A stretch of DNA of 64,000 nt from Prevotella fusca JCM 17724. GTDB taxonomy: Bacteria > Bacteroidota > Bacteroidia > Bacteroidales > Bacteroidaceae. Each line of letters begins with the position of its first letter. The first letter of the stretch is position 1. Positions 11,455-64,000 of this stretch are shown here, in pieces. The DNA lies in NCBI RefSeq assembly GCF_001262015.1, contig NZ_CP012074.1:1074501-1138500 (forward strand), written 5' to 3'. The translations under genes were made by a program, and so were the position numbers. The notes below the pieces were generated by a model, which was given only the letters and a program-made list of their open reading frames with translations, made no database searches and had not been told where the DNA came from.

Positions 11455-12546
11455 TTATTCGTAGCCATCTTCGAAGTCATCACCAGGATATTTCTTTAAT
11501 AGACTTGCAAAGCGAGGGTTATAATGAGACAACATTGCTGACCGGAAGCCTGTTGCCATCGTACTATCAGAACTGTGTCCCTGCTTTAATTTCTTTAAGG
11601 ACAAGTCAAGAGTTTCGTCAATAAAGTTATATGCCCACCGATTGTCATAAGCCATTACTGCCTCAAATAGATATTTGTTACGTGGCGGCATACTACATTC
11701 ACTCTTGTAAATCTCATAGTCACGGATACGTTTCAGCAAAGGGATGAAATCCTCACAAGGCCAAACAGCAACTGCCAACAAAGCATTGTTTACTTCATTA
11801 TCTTCCCCATAAAAAGATTCATTCCCGTTATCATAATGCGACAAAGCATTCAATAAGATTGCTTTATCTCCTTCTCTGCGAAAGGCTGCCAAAGCCTTAA
11901 GTGCCTGATAGGTTCGTTCTTTAAGAGCTATCTCCTTTATTCTTGCATAATAACTTTCCTTTGGAGGCAGTCTCAACAATAGTTTCTTTGTATATTGATA
12001 CTTGGATAATCCCGCTGTAAAGAGTGCCAAAGAGTCATTACGCAAAGAATCCTCCCTGTTGGTGACGACCTTACCTTTGCACGACTGAATATTACGTAAA
12101 AACACACTACCCGTATGCTCTTCCCACCCGACATCGTCTGCACTGACATTAATCATTGTCGTATCTGCATAGTTTGACAACAATATCTGTTCTAAATGTG
12201 CATACTTTCTCCTTATTAAGGCGTCTGTGGCAGTGAGACGAACAACAGGAGAATATCGTCTGCCTGTGAACTCATAAAGCTCTTTGTCACTGCACAATGA
12301 ATCCAGAAGAGGCTGAACAACAGGAAGTGCTATCGCAGCTTTGCATGTTTTGATATAAGCCGTATCAATATGGTCCAACAGACTATCAACGTTCAGATAA
12401 TACCGCCTGCCTTTAGAAGTTGTCATTTCATAGTATGTTCCACTTCTATTCAACATAAAAAGAACTTTCTCTATCTGCCCCTGACGCTTATCTGCACAAG
12501 CAACCAGCAACATACACATTAAAAGGAAAAATAGGATTCTCTTCAT
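11455..12546 (-). CDS. Lipoprotein of unknown function
   Basis: 363 residues. The signal peptide ends in a lipobox LLVAC (Cys17). The mature protein is mixed alpha/beta and charged. The second half is helical with a repeat-like feel (AIALKERTYQALKALAAF, AILLNALSHYDNGNESF, ALLAVAVWPCEDFIPLLKRI), suggestive of a HEAT/TPR-like solenoid, but no family is recognised. It is a single gene with its own -7 box, located between a bidirectional terminator and repeat copy B. Confidence 0.8.
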   Translation of the reverse strand: MKRILFFLLMCMLLVACADKRQGQIEKVLFMLNRSGTYYEMTTSKGRRYYLNVDSLLDHIDTAYIKTCKAAIALPVVQPLLDSLCSDKELYEFTGRRYSPVVRLTATDALIRRKYAHLEQILLSNYADTTMINVSADDVGWEEHTGSVFLRNIQSCKGKVVTNREDSLRNDSLALFTAGLSKYQYTKKLLLRLPPKESYYARIKEIALKERTYQALKALAAFRREGDKAILLNALSHYDNGNESFYGEDNEVNNALLAVAVWPCEDFIPLLKRIRDYEIYKSECSMPPRNKYLFEAVMAYDNRWAYNFIDETLDLSLKKLKQGHSSDSTMATGFRSAMLSHYNPRFASLLKKYPGDDFEDGYE

Positions 12547-53528: not shown

Positions 53529-54377
53529 TTACTTGCTGGTTCTTATATTAAACTCCGTCACTTTACTTATACTCTTCTGCCCCTGCAGAACTGTCAAGGC
53601 GAAATGTGCCATACCGTTCTTCAGCTTCTTGTCAGCCTTCACGAGTGCTGTATAACGAATGCCCTTGCCCGGCTCTATACTCTCAATGTGAATAGAAGGA
53701 CTAATATAAATATGTGCATTGCCAGTTGTTTCCAACACCGACGGCTGCACATCGCCGACAGGTCTGTCGCCACGGTTCATCACCTCAAAGATAATCTTGC
53801 CGACCTCATTGCGTGACAGCACCCCATCCTGGTTGTCGTCTACAAAACGGGCATTGACAATCTCGATATTCGGAGCATACAGGTAACCACCTGCCAGCTT
53901 GTCAACGCTTGACTCTGCCGGAACTCTTGTATCAGGCTGAGCCGCACTGTAATCGCCTGTGTAATCACTGCCTTGGAAATCATAAATGCGGTCGTCACCA
54001 GAGTTTGAGTTGTCAAAACCACTGCTGTTCGTTCCGTTTGAATAGGCATAGTCATCCGTCTGGTTATAATAATCGTAGTCCCTTCGGTTCCTTCTTTCAC
54101 GTGCCTTTCGTCGCTGCACCTTCTCATAGTGGTCGTGCACGTCTTCCCTGGCACGTTTGTCAGCCTTTGCACCGGCAGAAGCACCAATGATTGCGCCACC
54201 AGCCATACCGACTATCGAACCGATATCTGAACCTCTCGGACCACCGGCAATACCACCGATAGCACTTCCGAGGATACTTCCTAACGAACCACCCGTTACG
54301 GCGCCAGAGCCTGTGTATGTGCCGCAACTACTCAGAACGATGGCCGTAGAGACTGAGAGAATAAAACACTTCTTCAT
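53529..54377 (-). CDS. Glycine-zipper lipoprotein with EF-hand-like motif
   Basis: 282 residues. Lipobox LSSC (Cys18). Residues 22-72 are a glycine zipper (GAVTGGSLGSILGSAIGG, GSIVGMAGGAIIGASAGAKA) that likely packs in a membrane. Then come a basic helix (KVQRRKARERRNRRDY), a Ser/Asn/Tyr-rich linker and, from about 165, a beta domain that contains DDNQDGVLSRNE (a calcium-binding-loop-like DxDxDG pattern, here DDNQDG) and a CARDB-like fold (GKIIFEVMNRGDRPVGDVQPSV). Envelope function unknown. Confidence 0.8.
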   Translation of the reverse strand: MKKCFILSVSTAIVLSSCGTYTGSGAVTGGSLGSILGSAIGGIAGGPRGSDIGSIVGMAGGAIIGASAGAKADKRAREDVHDHYEKVQRRKARERRNRRDYDYYNQTDDYAYSNGTNSSGFDNSNSGDDRIYDFQGSDYTGDYSAAQPDTRVPAESSVDKLAGGYLYAPNIEIVNARFVDDNQDGVLSRNEVGKIIFEVMNRGDRPVGDVQPSVLETTGNAHIYISPSIHIESIEPGKGIRYTALVKADKKLKNGMAHFALTVLQGQKSISKVTEFNIRTSK

Positions 54378-55962: not shown

Positions 55963-56143
55963 ATCTTTCTTAGCTTTATCATCTCCTGTCTGACAGCCTT
56001 ACTGTCTTGACGTCTTACATCTTCAACACTTATTACAACCCTGAACCTCAGTCCATAGAGAAAAACCTATAAGACAATTCCCACTGTACCGAACTTCTCT
56101 TTCTTCATATATTACTAATCGTAGCAATAAAGCTACGCTGTCG

Positions 56144-56151
56144 CAAAAATA
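56144..56151 (-). promoter_or_regulatory. -7 promoter box TATTTTTG, long leader to 55962
   Basis: Minus-strand TAnnTTTG match. The predicted leader of about 175 nt begins with a small hairpin GTAGC/GCTAC (56121-56136). No known riboswitch was recognised. The rest of 55963-56500 has no supported gene. Confidence 0.5.
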
Positions 56152-56500
56152 CAAATTAAATCCTTTGTGCCTCTCACAATTAAGCATTTATTTTGTAGAC
56201 AGAAACAAAACAGTTGAAGAAAAATGAACAAAAACCAAACATTACTCGTAAGCAAATATATCTTGACAGGCAAAAGCAATCAATCAGTTGAGACGTATTT
56301 TCAAAGCTGCAAGATAAGTCCTGCCAACTGGTTGTACCCTAACCCCACAACATCTTGCGACGTGCTAAGCCCCCGCACCATTGGTGCTAACCAACAGCAC
56401 CACATGTGCTGGGCAAGAGCACGACAGCAGTAGATGGTGAGAGAGGCTCTTCATTATCACAACATCTTATACAAATATTCATATTCTAAATTCTACACTT

Positions 56501-56794
56501 ATGTTTTTAGGTTTTACAACTTTCAAATGTGACGACTGCAACAACATCTTCAGCGGACTACATATTGAGTCAGAAGCTACTTTTTATCCTATGCCTATGA
56601 CCTGTCCTAAATGCAATGGTCAACACACATATCCTCCCGGTCGGAAACTATCCGGCATTCGCTTTGGGGGATGCAGTCGTGACTTCTATAAAAAATATGG
56701 AAAGAAACGGATAAAAACAAAAGGCAACAAGATAGTCAATAGATTCCCATACAAAATGCACACCGTAGTCAAAAATAATGATTCAATCTTCTGA
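56501..56794 (+). CDS. Small zinc-ribbon protein (paralogue 1)
   Basis: 97 residues. FKCDDCNNIFSGLHIESEA and MTCPKCNGQHTYPPGR provide two CxxC pairs (zinc ribbon). The C-terminus is basic (DFYKKYGKKRIKTKGNKIVNRF). The pattern FkC..C...F.Gl..e..A....P..CP.C...HTYP.G is repeated in the 77-residue protein at 59034, so the two are paralogues. Function is unknown; they may bind nucleic acid or act as accessory proteins. The 5' flank contains short repeats related to the 22-bp unit. Confidence 0.72.
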   Translation: MFLGFTTFKCDDCNNIFSGLHIESEATFYPMPMTCPKCNGQHTYPPGRKLSGIRFGGCSRDFYKKYGKKRIKTKGNKIVNRFPYKMHTVVKNNDSIF

Positions 56795-56926
56795 TAAATC
56801 CAACTTTACAGAAGAAAGACTGTCATTATCGCGCTTAGGGGAGAGTATTAGCACACACTTTTCGTTGTGTTTTCTTCACTTTATTTCATTATTATTTTGC
56901 CATTTCCAATAAATTACCTACATTTG

Positions 56927-57170
56927 TGCCATGTTTGGTGGATGATTTACGAATCACTCGCCATTCATTGCACAAAACTTGCAAACGAGGTTATTCGACC
57001 CGGTTAAATCTGGAAAATTCAACTAAGGAGTCGTCAGTAATCGAGTTTAGGCAGGTTCTGTGCCCCTATCCTATATGGGGGCATGGACTGTCTTTACTTT
57101 ATTTTGACTCTAAGGTGTTTTCCAGAACCGAATCGGATAAATAAAGATAAAGCGGGCGTGCCCCCTTTTT
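56927..57170 (+). ncRNA. Candidate structured RNA or attenuator leader
   Basis: It is preceded by a -7 box TACATTTG (56919-56926) and has no plausible gene. Self-complementary segments are: TGATT/AATCA (56943-56956), GGTTCTG (57054-57060) with CAGAACC (57123-57129), and TGCCCC (57061-57066) with GGGGCA (57078-57083). GGGGGCA (57077-57083) can instead pair with TGCCCCC (57159-57165), which is followed by TTTTT, so a terminator/antiterminator switch is possible. The IS1380 element begins 7 bp after the T-run. Without the IS the segment would sit about 45 bp upstream of the small membrane-protein gene. No known RNA family is recognised. Confidence 0.4.
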
Positions 57171-57176
57171 CTATAA

Positions 57177-58777
57177 CCTCAATTCCGCAGCGTTTTTCCT
57201 TGTGAGGCGATTTTATATGTTGAGATGTCTTTTTGTGGCTCTATATGTTGTTATGAGGATTATCGGGGCTTCCCGGGTCTTGCCGAAGCATGAAATCCCC
57301 CACCCAAACCAATGGGGAATATGAGAACCACAAAGAAATGCTGCTTATTCAAGGAATACTTCAGAATAGTATGCTTTATTTGTATACAGGTTCAGAACGT
57401 TCCGCCTTCCTGTTCGCACCCATTTTGCCGGCACGCTGACGAAATGCAGGATAAAGGCTTTCAGTCTGCTTGTCTTTTTCAACGGCTTGACCTTTTCGCT
57501 GATATGTCGGACGAGATAGAGATAGAAGTTCTTCAGCATGGCGGTAACCATCATGAAAACCATGTTCTCAGCCATGAAGGAAAAGGGCAGATGTGCCCAG
57601 CCGAAGTCATTGTTCTGTATGTCGAAGTTCTTTTCGCTCGCTCCACGTTCATTGTAGAATGTAATGATGTCCTTCTCTGTGGATGTCCGGTTGTTGGTAA
57701 GGATACAGCGGTATGTGTATATCACTCCGAACATATCGGTCTGTACCCTGCCGTGCCTGTCTTTCAAGGGAGTACGCTGTACGACAAGCCTGTATGACTT
57801 TCCTTCGATGAGGTTGTCCATGCTGACGGAGGTGACATCGCACCTCTCATAACCAACCTCAACGCTCTTCCATTCTTCCAGCTGGCGGAACTCCCCGTAC
57901 CGGCTGCCGCAGTTGGCAGCACGTATATAGAACGTGTTGCAGCGTGACTCTACGGTCTGGATGATTTCCTTCGAGAACGACCCGCAGTCGGCACGGAAAC
58001 GCTCTGTCACAACACCAAGTTCGGAGGTCACACGGTCCATAATTCGGCGAAGCGTGTCCTCCTGATGGAATTTCACATTGGTGTTCCCGTCACGGTTCTC
58101 ACCTCCGACTATGATGCCCCCGATGGAAGCCCAGCCCGGAAATAGCCATGGTCCTGCTTGTAGGAATACTTTGCATCGAACTTACGGGCAGGAACAAACT
58201 GGTGGTCAAAGTCCAGGTCAACATGGCTGCCCGCCTTTATAAGCCCCATCCTACGTATCATACGTAAAAGTAAGGTGTTCAGCTTCTCTGCAGTGTTGAA
58301 ACTGTAGGACCTGCCGGAGGTTTCGCTCTTATAGACAATGTTCTCTTCAGCAAGCTCCTTCAGTCCGCGCCCCACAGTGTCGGCGCCGGGTAACAGCGTA
58401 CCAGGTCTCTGCCTGAACTGCCCTGTAAGCGCATTGATGTCCTCAAGGCAATCCCCACCGCAAAGGTAGCTGAAGAAGAGAGAGCCCAGGATGCTTCCAT
58501 GGCTGAATGCCTTGCCGCTGCATCCGCGTCTGCCCAACACGGATTCGGTAAGTTTTTCAAAGCCCAACCTTGAAAAAACGTCCATGATGTGATAAATTCC
58601 TCCGAAGGAAGTGATATTCTCGTTTTTAATTGCTACCTTTGTCATGTCAGATTTTTGCTTGCTTGTTATGTTTGTTGCACTAAGATAGGTGAAAATTCTG
58701 ACATATCCAAGTGTTTTGAGGACTTTGTTTCTCAGGCACTTGGATTTCTCACAAGATTTTATGCTGCGGAATTAAGG
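57177..58777 (-). mobile_element. IS1380-family insertion sequence with 5-bp target duplication
   Basis: 1601 bp. Imperfect terminal inverted repeats begin CCTCAATTCCGCAG (57177) and, reading inward from the other end, CCTTAATTCCGCAG (58777). They are flanked by identical 5-bp direct repeats TATAA (57172-57176 and 58778-58782), the expected target duplication. A subterminal hairpin CCAAGTG/CACTTGG (58707-58713 with 58737-58743) lies upstream of the transposase. The transposase frame is broken once. The intact target duplication says insertion in place, not recombination. Confidence 0.88.
57345..58645 (-). pseudogene. IS1380-family transposase, frameshifted
   Basis: The N-terminal part (178 codons from ATG 58645) includes GILGSLFFSYLCGGDCLEDIN-type residues (SILGSLFFSYLCGGDCLEDI) and HVDLDFDHQFV. 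It shifts frame near 58136-58142 in a CCGGG run. The C-terminal part reads GWASIGGIIVGGENRDGN, RFRADCGSFSKEIIQ and FYNERGASEKNFDIQNNDFGW with LPFSFMAENMVFMMVTAML, the DDE transposase of the IS1380 family. Adding one C restores GYFPGWASIGG. It is either a real frameshift or a sequencing indel. The gene runs opposite to its neighbours. Confidence 0.85.
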
Positions 58778-58822
58778 TATAATTTCGTTTGACAAGACAT
58801 AACTAAAAACAATATAACGACA

Positions 58823-59005
58823 ATGGAAGACTTCGCACATAGCTATGTTCAACTTTTTGATGAACATTGGCTCATCATCTTCATCCTGTGGGCTATTAAT
58901 ATCATTTGGATGTACAATCAAGATGAAACAAGGCAGTCTGCTGGATGTGGGTGCATAACACCCATAATAGCATTTATACTTTATATTTTATTTAAAACTC
59001 ACTAA
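58823..59005 (+). CDS. Small two-helix membrane protein
   Basis: 60 residues. Two hydrophobic segments (LIIFILWAINIIWMY, residues 17-31, and CITPIIAFILYILF, 44-57) with a GCGC pair between. No family is recognised. It starts 40 bp after the IS right end and 28 bp before the second zinc-ribbon gene, so the two probably share a transcript. It could be a membrane effector or anchor of the accessory island, which is only speculation. Confidence 0.6.
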   Translation: MEDFAHSYVQLFDEHWLIIFILWAINIIWMYNQDETRQSAGCGCITPIIAFILYILFKTH

Positions 59006-59033
59006 CAAGTTTCAAACAGATAAGAATTACATT

Positions 59034-59267
59034 ATGATTAGAGGAATCACAAGATTTAAGTGCAACGAGTGTTCTAAGAAGTTTTGGGGACTTGCGTTTG
59101 AATGGAGAGCTACTGCACTCACCGCACCATTACAATGTCCCCAATGCAAAAGCTACCATACATATCCCGTTGGAATATTAGGTTTGGGGACGGGAAAGGC
59201 AAAACTTTATAAAGAAATATGGGAAAGTATAGACGAAGATAAAAACAGCATAATACCCGACAGATAG
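59034..59267 (+). CDS. Small zinc-ribbon protein (paralogue 2)
   Basis: 77 residues. FKCNECSKKFWGLAFEWRA and LQCPQCKSYHTYPVG give two CxxC pairs in the same frame and spacing as the protein at 56501, with an acidic rather than basic C-terminus (YKEIWESIDEDKNSIIPDR). Clear duplication, on either side of the IS. It is 372 bp upstream of the dynamin-like pair, same strand. Confidence 0.72.
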   Translation: MIRGITRFKCNECSKKFWGLAFEWRATALTAPLQCPQCKSYHTYPVGILGLGTGKAKLYKEIWESIDEDKNSIIPDR

Positions 59268-59639
59268 CTATTCAAGAAGGGCTAAAAGAAGAGCGAAAGG
59301 CATCACATACTTCTGACAAAATTAACTGTACAGAAGAATGAGCTTTCCCTCCTCCCAAAGAGGTATACCCTACACCTCCTTTGTTATATAATTATTATGC
59401 AATTTACAACAAAGTCTTTACGTTCTATAATAACTGTTGCAAATGCGCAAGTTCAACATAGAATTGTAATCCCAAGGACAGGGATATAACTTAAAAACTC
59501 TAAATATGTAAGTATAAACAAATAAATCCTTAGCAACATGAATTTAATTTACAATACAAATTAGGTAGACGTTTAAGTATAATATACTACAAATGTTATT
59601 ATTATTTATGAAAAATTGAATCGACATCTTACAGTAAAC
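59268..59639. other. AT-rich spacer before the GTPase pair
   Basis: No gene is supported. A short ATG-started frame at 59608 ends after three codons. No exact TAnnTTTG box was found, so the promoter of the GTPase pair is unresolved. Confidence 0.4.
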
Positions 59640-61409
59640 ATGACAGAAGCCCAGTTATTAGTAGAAGAAAAGGTTCAACAGTATTTACATATTCTGAACC
59701 AATCCTTGGATAGAATCCGCAAATTAAAAGGAAGCAACACAGATTTTATCAACATACAGAATGCATTTCAGCAAGCTTTTGAAACATCAATAATTAGAGC
59801 AAAGCAAAGAATTGAAGATGTTAGAAATGGGGCAGTATGGGATAATTTAGTTATTGCTTTATTTGGAGAAACCAATGCAGGAAAAAGTACGATAATTGAA
59901 ACATTTAGAATATTATTGGCAGAACAGGAAAGAGCAGATAAACTTCGTTCTTCAAAAGAAGGTATTGACGGACTGATTATCGGGAATGGTGAAAGTGATT
60001 GTACTCAGATATATAAAGAATACAAAATGACTATATCAGGAGTACCTGTCACCCTTATAGATGTTCCTGGAATAGAAGGGAATGAAGTAAAATATGAAGA
60101 TGAAATTAAATCTGCATTAAACAGAACTCACTATGTTTTCTACGTTCAAGGCCAAAATAAAAAGCCTGATGATGGTACTGCTGGTAAAATAAAGAAGTAT
60201 CTTAGAGACTGGGTAAAAGTATACTCAATATTTAATGTGCGAGCTGTCGCAGCGAGCTATGAAGAAGAAGACGAACGTAAGTGTTTACTTAATGAAAGTC
60301 AAAAAAAAATTGAGTCACAAATAAAAAACACATTTACTAAAATTTTGGGTGACACATATATGGGCAATATTACAATTCAGGCTCATCTAGCATTGTGTTC
60401 AAAAGCTGTTTTCGCCCCTGAACGAAAAGATCTACAAAGAGGACAAAATAAATTACTAATGTATTTTGGAGATAGTGAGTCTATTCTATCGTTTAGTCAA
60501 TTTCAAACATTAATAAATACTATCAATGAGAAAGCTTCAAACTTTACAAATGAAATCATTGAAGCTAATAAAGAAAAGCATAAGGCATTATTGCAGTTTA
60601 TTTATTATACTTCCAAAAACATATTATCTCAAGAAAATCAGAAGATGGCAAAGTTAAAACAATCCATTAATGATTTTCGACAAAAAACTAAAGAAGATTT
60701 TGCAGCAGCCAAACGTTCAATAAAGAACAAATCTTTACTAAGATATTCATCACTGTTTGACCAAATCTACAAAGAATCAGTTCTTTCTATTGATATAGAT
60801 ATAGAAAATAAAGAAGTATATTGTAAGAAATGTACTGAACAAATAATAAGAGAAACAACAAATAATATTCATAAAGATATTTCAACAGTAATTAAGAACC
60901 TCAATAAGAATATTAATAAAAGGAAACGGTCATTAGATCAAATCTTATCTGAGATAAATATGGATACTGATTCACCAAAGCTATTAATAGCACCTTCTTT
61001 TGGAGAAGCTTTAGAAAAATTAGACTTTAATTCTGCAGATTTCGGGAACATGGTTTCAGTATCTATTACGACAGTTCTTGCCTTAGTAAATTACTGGAAT
61101 CCAATTGGATGGATTATTGCTATTAGTAGTATTCTTATGTGGCTTTTAGATGGTCGCAACAAGAAGGCAGAAGCAAAAGAAGAAATGCGTAAACAAATAA
61201 ACAAGGTGAAGAGTGAAAACTATCAAGAATTCGTTTCTTCTATAACACAAATTTGTAAAAAACTTGATGATTCATACAATCAGTTAGCAAATTCTATCAA
61301 GATAGACTATACTAATATTGTTAAACTAAACCGTGAATTAGATTCTTTTATAATAAAAATAAACATAGAAATATCTAAATTAAAGATTTCAGATTATGGA
61401 AAAATATAA
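59640..61409 (+). CDS. Dynamin-like large GTPase, first of pair (Eleos-like)
   Basis: 589 residues from ATG 59640 (a TTG 8 codons earlier is weaker). G1 GETNAGKST (76-84) and G3 DVPGIEG (141-147). The G4 region is degenerate, with no NKxD seen. Long predicted coiled coils (about 330-460 and 510-589) flank a hydrophobic hairpin (about 471-505, VSITTVLALVNYWNPIGWII) that may insert in membrane, the usual paddle of bacterial dynamins. It overlaps the next gene by 14 bp. The pairing of two dynamin-like genes is the composition of the Eleos (LeoA/LeoBC) anti-phage system. AT-rich codons contrast with the core genes. Confidence 0.8.
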   Translation: MTEAQLLVEEKVQQYLHILNQSLDRIRKLKGSNTDFINIQNAFQQAFETSIIRAKQRIEDVRNGAVWDNLVIALFGETNAGKSTIIETFRILLAEQERADKLRSSKEGIDGLIIGNGESDCTQIYKEYKMTISGVPVTLIDVPGIEGNEVKYEDEIKSALNRTHYVFYVQGQNKKPDDGTAGKIKKYLRDWVKVYSIFNVRAVAASYEEEDERKCLLNESQKKIESQIKNTFTKILGDTYMGNITIQAHLALCSKAVFAPERKDLQRGQNKLLMYFGDSESILSFSQFQTLINTINEKASNFTNEIIEANKEKHKALLQFIYYTSKNILSQENQKMAKLKQSINDFRQKTKEDFAAAKRSIKNKSLLRYSSLFDQIYKESVLSIDIDIENKEVYCKKCTEQIIRETTNNIHKDISTVIKNLNKNINKRKRSLDQILSEINMDTDSPKLLIAPSFGEALEKLDFNSADFGNMVSVSITTVLALVNYWNPIGWIIAISSILMWLLDGRNKKAEAKEEMRKQINKVKSENYQEFVSSITQICKKLDDSYNQLANSIKIDYTNIVKLNRELDSFIIKINIEISKLKISDYGKI

Positions 61410-63054
61410 AGATTTTGAAGTACTTAAATCCCTGCTCTTAGAAGGGGCTAATTACGACCTTGACTTATCCGAGCTTTCCCAAAAACTTGAAGAGTATACA
61501 GCTTCATCATCTGAGGGATTGATAAAAGTCGTACTTTTAGGTTCCTTTTCCGATGGAAAGACTACTGCTATTGCTGGCTTACTGAACCAATTAGAAGATA
61601 ATATGAAAATTGACGAGGATGAGTCTACTGACGACCTTGTTGTATATTATATGGATGGATTAGGTCACCAGTATCAAATTATAGACACTCCTGGACTATT
61701 TGGTACAGAAGAGAAGAATATCAACGGCAAAACTATTAGGATTTCTGACATTACAGAAAAATACATATCCGAAGCTCATATTGTAATCTACGTTTGCAAT
61801 TCTGTTAATACATTGAAAGATAGTCACAAAGAAGTTCTTCAAAAAGTTCTTAGAGAGTATGGAAAACTACGGTCTGCTATCTTTGTTATTAATAAGATGG
61901 ACGATGTTGCTGATACAAACGATGAAGAAGAATATATGGAAGTTTCTGCTATCAAAATGAAAACATTCACTGATAGACTAAAACAAGTTATTGGATTAAC
62001 ACCAGATGAGGAAAAGCAATTAAAGATAGCATGTGTTTCTGCAAATCCTAAAGGGAAAGGTCTGCACGAATGGTTTACAAAAAAGGAAGAATACGATAGA
62101 AGATCCCATTTACAACAATTAAAAGAGTATGTATCAAGCACCATAAAAGAATCTGATATAAAGATTTTATCAACACAAGTAGATGAAGCTGTTATTAAAG
62201 ACATTGGGTTTGAATTGAAACTTTCTCTTACAGAAAAAATTGCTCAACTAGACGAAACGGTAAGCAAAATAAAGGATTCCTTAGATCAGATGGAGTCAAA
62301 CTTAGCTATCTTGAAGAGTGATATTATTCAAAATAAAGGTATAATGCGTAATGGCATAGAACAGTTACAAAAATATTATAATCATGAGTTAAATAATGTC
62401 GGAAACCTTACGGCAATGGGAACTTTAGTTGAGGATGAATTTGGAATAAAGAATGATAAGATTGATTTTAATATTCTTGAAAGAAAGGTAAATCAGATTC
62501 TCGAAGAATGTTGCGAATCCAACAATTCTAAAATAAAGGCGAACGAAACCACATTTAAACAACAGTTTGAAACTCAAAACGAGATTCTCAATAAAGTACT
62601 AAAGGGTGGATTACAAGGAATGCATAAAGTAACTAGAAAAAACGTTTTACAAGCTAGAGATTTACTCTTCAAGGGGTATAAATTCAAACCTTGGGGAGCT
62701 ACTAAGGTTGCAAAAAATATTAGAACGGCTGCAGCTGTTATAGGAGTTTTACTAGATGGCTGGGCTCTTTATAAAAAAAACAAAAATAACAAGAAACTTA
62801 ATGAAATTATAAAAAATATCAAGGAGATTCTCAGGTGCTATTTTTCTGAAATTTTTAATATGTTTAAGGAAAATGATACTTACTTTAAAAATTTTGCTCC
62901 TTCTTATGTGGAACTTTCAAAAACTGTAACAGACAGGAAAGATGAATTACATGTCCTTGAAGTCAATATTTTATCTTTGAAGAAATATAAGGAAAAAATT
63001 CAACGATGGTTTGGCGAGGATATAGAGGATGCTGTTTTTGAAGAAATCAATTAA
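61396..63054 (+). CDS. Dynamin-like large GTPase, second of pair (Eleos-like)
   Basis: 552 residues. G1 GSFSDGKTT (49-57), G3 DTPGLFG (97-103) and an intact G4 NKMD (166-169). A helical middle domain of about 250-440 follows, with a hydrophobic stretch AAAVIGVLLDGWALY (445-459) flanked by basic residues, and a helical, mostly charged C-terminus. The G1 with Phe-Ser and Thr replacing the second Ser is like LeoA-type GTPases. The 14-bp overlap with the previous gene implies coupled translation. Both are probably membrane-acting partners. Assignment to Eleos is inferred from domain pairing and size. Confidence 0.8.
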   Translation: MEKYKDFEVLKSLLLEGANYDLDLSELSQKLEEYTASSSEGLIKVVLLGSFSDGKTTAIAGLLNQLEDNMKIDEDESTDDLVVYYMDGLGHQYQIIDTPGLFGTEEKNINGKTIRISDITEKYISEAHIVIYVCNSVNTLKDSHKEVLQKVLREYGKLRSAIFVINKMDDVADTNDEEEYMEVSAIKMKTFTDRLKQVIGLTPDEEKQLKIACVSANPKGKGLHEWFTKKEEYDRRSHLQQLKEYVSSTIKESDIKILSTQVDEAVIKDIGFELKLSLTEKIAQLDETVSKIKDSLDQMESNLAILKSDIIQNKGIMRNGIEQLQKYYNHELNNVGNLTAMGTLVEDEFGIKNDKIDFNILERKVNQILEECCESNNSKIKANETTFKQQFETQNEILNKVLKGGLQGMHKVTRKNVLQARDLLFKGYKFKPWGATKVAKNIRTAAAVIGVLLDGWALYKKNKNNKKLNEIIKNIKEILRCYFSEIFNMFKENDTYFKNFAPSYVELSKTVTDRKDELHVLEVNILSLKKYKEKIQRWFGEDIEDAVFEEIN

Positions 63055-63220
63055 ACACTAGCTAAGTTTAACGGACAAATTTATTTTTCATTAATTTTCA
63101 GGGTGTATGGAGGGTTTCCAACACCCTAAGTGTTTGACAATAAGTTCTAGCATTTTAAAAAGAGGAGCAAAATCTGATTTGTAGGACACCAGCATATCAT
63201 TTTTTTATTACTTTGTACCC

Positions 63221-63481
63221 ATGCACGCAAATGTAAAATTATTAGCTCTGTTAGGTAATCAACCCATCAACGCTGCTACTATCCGTAACATCACGTATAC
63301 ACTCATACGCGAAGAATTAGCACGTTTATACGGAACATCTGTACAAGAAGCTGCAGACATCATAGGAAACCAACTTGACTGCGCTCCACACGAGGACATC
63401 TCTGGCTATATCTTCATGGTACCCAACTGGGCGCATAAATGGTTTCGGCACAAGGGCTATGTATCAAAAATGCTAAAGTAG
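63221..63481 (+). CDS. Small hypothetical protein
   Basis: 86 residues, no signal peptide. The sequence (NAATIRNITYTLIREELARLYGTSVQEAADIIGNQLDCAPHEDISGYIFMV and a basic end) is well composed, mostly helical, with no known family. A near -7 box TACTTTG (one base short of consensus) ends 5 bp before the ATG, so the mRNA may be leaderless. It converges on rplQ through a shared hairpin. Confidence 0.6.
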   Translation: MHANVKLLALLGNQPINAATIRNITYTLIREELARLYGTSVQEAADIIGNQLDCAPHEDISGYIFMVPNWAHKWFRHKGYVSKMLK

Positions 63482-63501
63482 AAAGCCTAATCTACAACAA
63501 A

Positions 63502-63534
63502 AAAACTCCCGATACATTAAGTACCGGGAGTTTT
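63502..63534. terminator. Bidirectional terminator between hypothetical and rplQ
   Basis: AAAACTCCCGATAC (63502-63515) pairs with GTACCGGGAGTTTT (63521-63534), one mismatch. A/T runs on both sides serve both strands. Confidence 0.8.
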
Positions 63535-63561
63535 CTATTATAGAAATAAATTCTATTCGGA

Positions 63562-64000
63562 TTATTCAGCCTTTGCCTCTTCAGCAACGTTCTCAACAGC
63601 CTTTGCAGGAACATCAGCCTTCTTTGTAGAACGACGGCTACGACGAGTCTTCTTAGCATCAGCCTTTGGAGACTTAGCCATATTCTCATTGTAGTCAACC
63701 AACTCGATGAATGCTATCTGAGCAGCGTCACCCTGACGAGTACCGAGCTTGATAACACGTGTATAACCGCCTGGACGATCAGCTACCTTTACAGAAATCT
63801 CCTTGAAGAGCTCAGTGACAGCCTCCTTGTTCTGAAGATAACGGAAAACAACACGACGTGAGTTGGTTGTATCGTTCTTAGAACGTGTAATCAGCGGCTC
63901 TACATACTTCTTAAGAGCCTTTGCCTTAGCGAGAGTCGTAGTGATTCTTTTGTGCTGAATCAGAGCAACTGCCAAGTTTGAAAGCAATGCAGCGCGATGG
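63562..64000 (-). CDS. rplQ: 50S ribosomal protein L17, 5' end outside window
   Basis: The minus-strand frame is open to the window edge (reading [19 protein letters not shown]), so the first dozen or so residues lie beyond base 64000. L17 features are [43 protein letters not shown] and [17 protein letters not shown] with FIELVDYN. The chain has a long basic and Ala-rich extension ([29 protein letters not shown]) common in Bacteroidales. It is normally the last gene of the alpha operon. Confidence 0.96.

What the first reader, a model, noticed from the sequence alone, without database searches (positions are those of the whole stretch)
59640..63054. Overlapping pair of dynamin-like GTPases resembling the Eleos anti-phage system
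Seen: two large genes, 14-bp overlap, both with G1 and G3 motifs of large GTPases, one with degenerate G4, each with a hydrophobic membrane segment amid long coiled coils. AT-rich and next to an IS and small unknown genes. Established: Eleos (LeoA plus LeoBC-type dynamins) is a two-gene defence system. Inference: this locus is a Prevotella Eleos-like system, possibly a divergent subtype since the first protein lacks NKxD.
Basis: partly seen in the sequence, partly recalled or inferred. Interest (0 to 1): 0.75.

Follow-up and report, generated by a model that had tools for sequence, protein, structure and literature searches.

The report
Eleos anti-phage dynamin gene pair
Two overlapping genes encode a pair of membrane-acting dynamin-like proteins that match a known bacterial anti-phage system called Eleos, and the missing motif that made the pair look unusual turns out to be missing throughout that protein family.

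Summary
Window 59640-61409 and 61396-63054 are two dynamin-like genes overlapping by 14 bp. The first is a fused LeoBC (PADLOC LeoBC, E 2.5e-106), the second LeoA (PADLOC LeoA, E 1.3e-129; NCBIfam LeoA subfamily, 439 bits against a cutoff of 325). So this is an Eleos locus, order leoBC-leoA. The 'divergent subtype' inference fails: Asp at the fourth place of NKxD occurs in 0 of 59 readable LeoBC rows (60 named loci plus window), but in 60 of 60 readable LeoA rows. A LeoA start at the 14-bp position recurs in 22 of 60 loci. LeoA occurs in 6 of 299 genomes of the genus, own included. The locus lies in a variable interval beside rplQ, under 1 kb long in 7 of 12 relatives compared, between an IS and an IS-end-like repeat. 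Most likely it works as a heterotypic dynamin pair acting on membranes during phage infection; that mechanism is inferred. New member of a known kind, low surprise; the family-wide asymmetry of the two nucleotide sites is the most interesting part.

The parts
59640..61409 (+). leoBC, fused LeoBC dynamin-like protein, 589 aa
   Evidence: PADLOC PDLC03841 LeoBC E 2.5e-106, residues 8-584, profile 11-598 of 601; dynamin-like model
61396..63054 (+). leoA, dynamin-like GTPase, 552 aa
   Evidence: PADLOC PDLC03840 LeoA E 1.3e-129; NCBIfam NF041922 439.3 bits, cutoff 325; PDB 4aur E 6.6e-79
61396..61409 (+). 14-bp overlap of leoBC end and leoA start
   Evidence: an in-frame start at the same place in 22 of 60 named loci
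59865..59888 (+). LeoBC G1 (P-loop) GETNAGKS
60060..60080 (+). LeoBC G3, DVPGIEG
60234..60245 (+). LeoBC G4 position, NVRA instead of NKxD
61026..61148 (+). LeoBC putative membrane paddle (residues 463-503)
   Evidence: hydropathy peaks; low-confidence tip of the model
61540..61563 (+). LeoA G1 (P-loop) GSFSDGKT
61891..61902 (+). LeoA G4, NKMD
57177..58779 (-). insertion sequence on the left; its transposase lies in two ORFs (57345-58076, 58109-58645)
   Evidence: DDE_Tnp_1_4; nine near-full-length copies elsewhere in the genome; terminal inverted repeat. IS1380-type is recalled.
63064..63235 (+). repeat on the right edge, probably the end of another mobile element
   Evidence: 84-85% over 143 bp and 92-95% over 38 bp at two other places of the genome, there in front of an ORF with the same start
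63221..63481 (+). 86-aa ORF, remnant of the C-terminal part of a 172-aa gene that is whole at this site in genome G026; flank, not shown to belong to Eleos
   Evidence: 91% over 80 residues
59034..59267 (+). small zinc-ribbon-like ORF (77 aa); flank, membership in Eleos not shown
   Evidence: relative found in 45 of 60 genomes of the genus

Best explanation
A horizontally acquired two-gene Eleos anti-phage system, leoBC-leoA. The two proteins are made together from overlapping genes and probably assemble into a heterotypic dynamin complex. LeoA carries a complete guanine-binding site; LeoBC keeps the P-loop and DxxG but lacks the guanine-specifying Asp. I think damage or signals at the membrane during phage infection trigger co-assembly through paired G domains and long helical trunks; the paddles then bind the membrane, and the complex either shores it up or remodels it, so that phage release is delayed or the infected cell dies early. 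Shown here: family membership, dynamin-like fold of LeoBC, gene coupling, the G4 asymmetry, the sporadic location. Inferred: the complex, the trigger, the membrane action and the defence outcome. Membership alone I would put near 0.97; the confidence given is for the whole statement.
For: Full-length LeoBC and LeoA profile matches; all 28 members of the LeoBC alignment also match PADLOC's LeoBC model; in 60 of 60 named loci leoBC, fused or in pieces, lies upstream of leoA on the same strand; conserved 14-bp start position in 22 of 60; dynamin-like fold; sporadic presence and a variable, IS-bracketed site. From papers: a Campylobacter dynamin pair is monomeric apart and gains GTPase and lipid binding as a 2:2 complex, and its authors extend this to LeoA with LeoB and LeoC (PMC6104087, abstract and passages); E. 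coli LeoA alone bound no nucleotide (PMC4159319, passages and sections); DynA of B. subtilis delays phage lysis (PMC8844932, abstract).
Against: No phage test exists for this locus, and the primary Eleos paper was not readable, so the link from Eleos to phage defence rests on PADLOC's naming, on passages in surveys and on recall. The E. coli LeoABC paper reports a role in vesicle release, not defence. Foldseek TM-scores of the LeoBC model are low (0.2-0.4) with large rmsd, and VIA-align's best rows are generic GTPases over the G domain only. Pfam Dynamin_N scores 26.5 bits for LeoBC, just under its cutoff of 27.
Confidence: 0.6

Rival explanations
1. A LeoABC-type membrane-vesicle system: the pair drives outer-membrane vesicle release, and any effect on phages is secondary (for example vesicles as decoys).
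For: Deletion of leoA, leoB or both in E. coli H10407 cut vesicle cargo by about half (PMC4159319, passages).
Against: Sporadic presence and presence in a variable, IS-bracketed site suit a defence or other accessory module better than a general secretion function, but do not exclude this.
Confidence: 0.13
2. A membrane-stress repair pair, as proposed for DynA under antibiotics, kept for reasons other than phages.
For: [quoted passage not shown]
Against: No own evidence; rarity (6 of 299 genomes) argues against a general repair role.
Confidence: 0.1
3. A three-part system in some Bacteroidales: leoBC-leoA plus a small HNH-like gene directly downstream as nuclease effector; the window copy would have lost the third part.
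For: An LHH ORF 152 bp (L071) and 286 bp (L089) after leoA, and the 172-aa family 183 bp (L070) and 256 bp (L090) after leoA, all on the same strand; both families are rare in relatives (2 of 60 and 4 of 60 genomes).
Against: Only 4 of the 23 loci L068-L090 have it; G026 has the 172-aa gene at this site without Eleos; the nuclease reading of the 172-aa family is weak (WHH 13.5 bits against a cutoff of 25.1 for the window remnant; nothing for the whole relatives). No control for other mobile neighbours.
Confidence: 0.06
4. A decaying remnant without function.
For: IS on the left, IS-end-like repeat on the right, truncated neighbouring ORF.
Against: Both frames are whole with intact P-loop and G3; metagenomic relatives 92-96% identical over the whole LeoBC exist (P0001-P0007).
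Confidence: 0.05

Closest known systems
Eleos defence system, fused LeoBC + LeoA form (PADLOC PDLC03841 and PDLC03840)
   Same: Both proteins match over nearly full length, adjacent, leoBC first
   Different: Nothing tested here sets it apart; LeoBC has no N-terminal extension such as some gut Bacteroidales relatives carry
LeoABC of E. coli H10407 (LeoA, PDB 4AUR)
   Same: LeoA homologous over 504 residues; the upstream partner is dynamin-like (PMC4159319, section 16)
   Different: In E. coli the partner is split into leoC and leoB with a hydrophobic anchor at the end of LeoC; here it is one gene, with no strong hydrophobic segment found in the G domain
Paired or fused bacterial dynamins: Campylobacter DLP1/2, B. 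subtilis DynA, Nostoc BDLP
   Same: Dynamin pair; LeoBC model matches BDLP and Cj-DLP (5owv) by fold
   Different: Low identity (12-13% in those rows); PADLOC and NCBIfam place the window pair with Leo proteins

Membership tests
Eleos (LeoA + LeoBC) | LeoA protein | tested here: met
   PADLOC E 1.3e-129; NCBIfam NF041922 over its cutoff
Eleos (LeoA + LeoBC) | LeoBC protein, or LeoB plus LeoC | tested here: met
   PADLOC LeoBC E 2.5e-106 over 577 of 589 residues
Eleos (LeoA + LeoBC) | the two genes adjacent, same strand | tested here: met
   14-bp overlap; same order in 60 of 60 named loci
Eleos (LeoA + LeoBC) | protects against phages | not testable with these tools
   needs a phage challenge
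   0 of 59 LeoBC rows from named loci plus window, and 0 of 117 metagenomic rows, have Asp at the fourth place (3 of the 117 have Glu)
Bacterial dynamin-like proteins | G domain followed by a long helical trunk with a membrane paddle | tested here: met
   LeoBC model and Foldseek ranks 1-6 BDLP, IniA, LeoA; LeoA by Pfam DLP_helical E 1.3e-44. Membrane binding itself was not tested.
   Dynamins rank first; IRG entries appear from rank 23 (E 4.1e-5) in Foldseek, and no septin is among the 50 rows shown; absence from a capped list is not exclusion
GIMAP / AIG1 GTPases | AIG1 domain | tested here: inconclusive
   LeoA scores 32.6 bits against PF04548, cutoff 27, over the G domain only; DLP_helical (153.4 bits) and the LeoA models score far higher

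The most novel reading that the evidence does not exclude
Eleos is built on a fixed division of labour: LeoA is the guanine-reading GTPase, while LeoBC is an obligate partner whose nucleotide site has lost guanine specificity, so that it either reads another nucleotide (for example ATP or a pool altered by the phage) or forms a half-site completed by LeoA. The pair would be a nucleotide-gated heterodimeric dynamin, with the varied N-terminal extensions of some Bacteroidales LeoBC proteins as exchangeable infection sensors.
Probability: 0.3. Interest if true: 0.6.

Novelty: new member of a known kind. Interest (0 to 1): 0.25.

Why it matters
It places one more intact, compact Eleos pair and removes a false lead about a subtype. 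The asymmetry of the two nucleotide sites (Asp at G4 in 60 of 60 readable LeoA rows, 0 of 59 readable LeoBC rows) makes the open question of why bacterial dynamins come in pairs directly testable: does LeoBC bind GTP at all, and only with LeoA? The fused form in the window may be easier to purify than split LeoB and LeoC, which the 2014 authors could not obtain in sufficient quantity (PMC4159319, passage).

Tried and rejected
Divergent subtype: rejected. Septin- or IRG-like filing: not favoured. Phage-borne Eleos: in viral contigs 30 stretches matched a pattern and none was confirmed; no match in phage records; plasmids gave 9 records with partial, low-identity matches, none covering 80% of the query. 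Rfam: nothing at gathering threshold in 56000-64000. Promoter scan: 24 sites against 18.4 expected, terminators 0 against 1.2; not used. The first genome-contig scan, with the single protein, confirmed nothing; the scan with the alignment confirmed 60 of 91 stretches. Its two patterns lie on G3 and just before G4, so those 60 are chosen by these stretches, not by the G4 residues themselves.

A long LeoBC relative with an N-terminal extension (P0071) was folded with a 17-row alignment: mean pLDDT 53.9, the extension mostly under 50, so it is unusable.

Rows dropped or void: the script count of G1 at the end returned 0, which I take to be an alignment gap in those columns; it is void, and G1 is read. 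In one search, six of the 51 'readable' LeoBC rows are N-terminal LeoC halves without a real G4 and were dropped, leaving 45 with the window. Fourteen rows (L113-L126) are gapped there and were read by eye (NK, NQ or NH first, no Asp fourth). L089 and L127 are interrupted and have no readable G4. One of 61 LeoA rows (L107, cut by the contig end) is unreadable. In one search the third match (G053, E 5.8e-4, 26% over 152 residues) was not counted as LeoA. In one search at most four candidates per genome were scored. Some leo genes counted as 'in pieces' (L086, L089, L127) may be interrupted rather than naturally split. ORF lengths in the census use the longest start.

Do the small neighbours belong to Eleos? 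Not shown: G026 has a zinc-ribbon relative and the whole 172-aa gene at this site without Eleos.

Full report

THE MISSING G4. I tested this in two sets. Among 116 metagenomic relatives (of 120 listed, those over 540 aa) plus the window, 0 of 117 have [NT]KxD; 95 have NVRG and 3 have Glu at the fourth place. A scan of one genome per species confirmed 60 named loci, from Bacteroidales to Pseudomonas, Acinetobacter and Helicobacter. With the window that is 61 LeoBC; 59 have a readable G4 and none has Asp at the fourth place (45 by script; 14 by eye). In LeoA 60 of 60 readable rows have Asp there, and 45 of the 60 have [NT]KxD. So the asymmetry belongs to the family. In the 2014 LeoABC paper the string NKxD does not occur, and sections 16 and 17, the abstract and the passages I read name P-loop, switch 1 and switch 2 for LeoC and LeoB but not G4. 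No paper of the library holds both 'Eleos' and 'LeoBC', or 'Eleos', 'phage' and 'GTPase'. The primary Eleos paper is not held, so I cannot say that the asymmetry is unpublished.

GENE COUPLING. In 60 of 60 named loci leoBC (38 as one ORF, 21 in two pieces, 1 in three) lies upstream of leoA on the same strand; in L098 the listed LeoA ORF starts 2.8 kb further on. In 22 of 60 an in-frame LeoA start codon stands at exactly the 14-bp position. The overlap is thus an inherited feature; translational coupling is an inference.

LOCATION. Among 60 relatives, own genome included, LeoBC is found in 2 and LeoA convincingly in the same 2; LeoA is found in 6 of 299 genomes of the genus, own included. The pair lies next to rplQ. 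I fetched rplQ surroundings from 13 of the 44 other genomes with an rplQ match. None of the 13 stretches carries leo genes. In 12 of the 13 the glycine-zipper gene that lies to the left in the window (53529-54377) was found: in 7 it is under 1 kb from rplQ, in 5 it is 2.9-11.8 kb away with other genes between; in the window the gap is 9.2 kb. The thirteenth, G026 (rplQ 96% identical), has a radical-SAM protein and unknown ORFs at this place, with 93% identical DNA at window 56844-57172 and 92% at 63237-64000. The right edge of the insert, 63064-63235, is a repeat present at two other places of the genome in front of an ORF with the same start, probably the end of a mobile element. Behind it the window keeps only the C-terminal part of a 172-aa gene that is whole in G026. 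On the left is an IS with nine near-full-length and many partial copies in the genome. GC falls to 0.31. All this fits horizontal gain at a variable site.

NEIGHBOURS ELSEWHERE. G028's Eleos, at another site, also has the 14-bp overlap and is followed about 2.6 kb on by a SIR2-TIR gene and an nSTAND1 gene. Around the 60 loci, clusters of WYL-type regulators (6 and 4 loci, one member of each checked by Pfam) and HsdM (4 loci, one checked) recur. There was no control set, so I give this no weight.

MECHANISM. From papers: monomeric E. coli LeoA neither bound nor hydrolysed nucleotide, against an earlier report, and a heterodimer with LeoBC was proposed (PMC4159319, passages). A Campylobacter dynamin pair is monomeric until mixed, then forms a 2:2 complex with GTPase and membrane-tethering activity, and its authors extend this to LeoA with LeoB and LeoC (PMC6104087, abstract and passages). 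B. subtilis DynA clusters on the membrane after phage infection and delays lysis (PMC8844932, abstract). I infer that the window pair works as such a complex, with LeoA supplying the complete guanine site. Whether the outcome is delayed lysis or cell death is unknown, and the vesicle role reported for E. coli LeoABC stays a live rival.

VERDICT. New member of a known kind. The conserved asymmetry of the nucleotide sites is the part worth a bench test.

Noticed in passing
P0040, P0060, P0063, P0068, P0071, P0088, P0092, P0097, P0118; L071, L072, L074, L075, L082, L090: Some Bacteroidales LeoBC relatives are 692-1016 aa long because of N-terminal extensions that differ between groups: Sel1 repeat over its cutoff in P0088, bPH_3 only under its cutoff in P0071 and P0068. 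The extensions of the six named loci gave no Pfam domain. Possible exchangeable sensors; the window copy has none.
   Followed up: partly
L070:10667-11107, L090:10482-10925 and 11502-12014, L071:10582-11106, L089:7403-7924, window 63221-63481: Small ORFs follow leoA within 300 bp on the same strand: an LHH nuclease family member in L071 and L089 (only L071 checked by Pfam) and the 172-aa family in L070 and L090; the window keeps a remnant of the latter. LHH in 2 of 60 and the 172-aa family in 4 of 60 relatives.
   Followed up: partly
window 56501-56794 and 59034-59267; L041, L069, L071, L072, L074: Two related zinc-ribbon-like small ORFs lie on either side of the IS; relatives lie near Eleos in four named loci and at this site in G026 without Eleos, while only 3 of 60 relatives have one at E 0.001.
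   Followed up: partly
window 57177-58779: The IS copy has its transposase in two separate minus-strand ORFs; nine near-full-length copies and many fragments lie elsewhere in the genome. Not examined further.
   Followed up: no
L044, L048, L050, L051, L053 (rplQ to glycine-zipper gene in relatives): This interval is variable across the genus: 2.9-11.8 kb of other genes in 5 of 12 genomes, including very large ORFs (up to 1746 aa in L053), under 1 kb in the other 7.
   Followed up: partly
L049 (G028:C30): Near the Eleos pair of G028 lie a SIR2-TIR gene and an nSTAND1 ATPase gene, possibly a second defence system.
   Followed up: no
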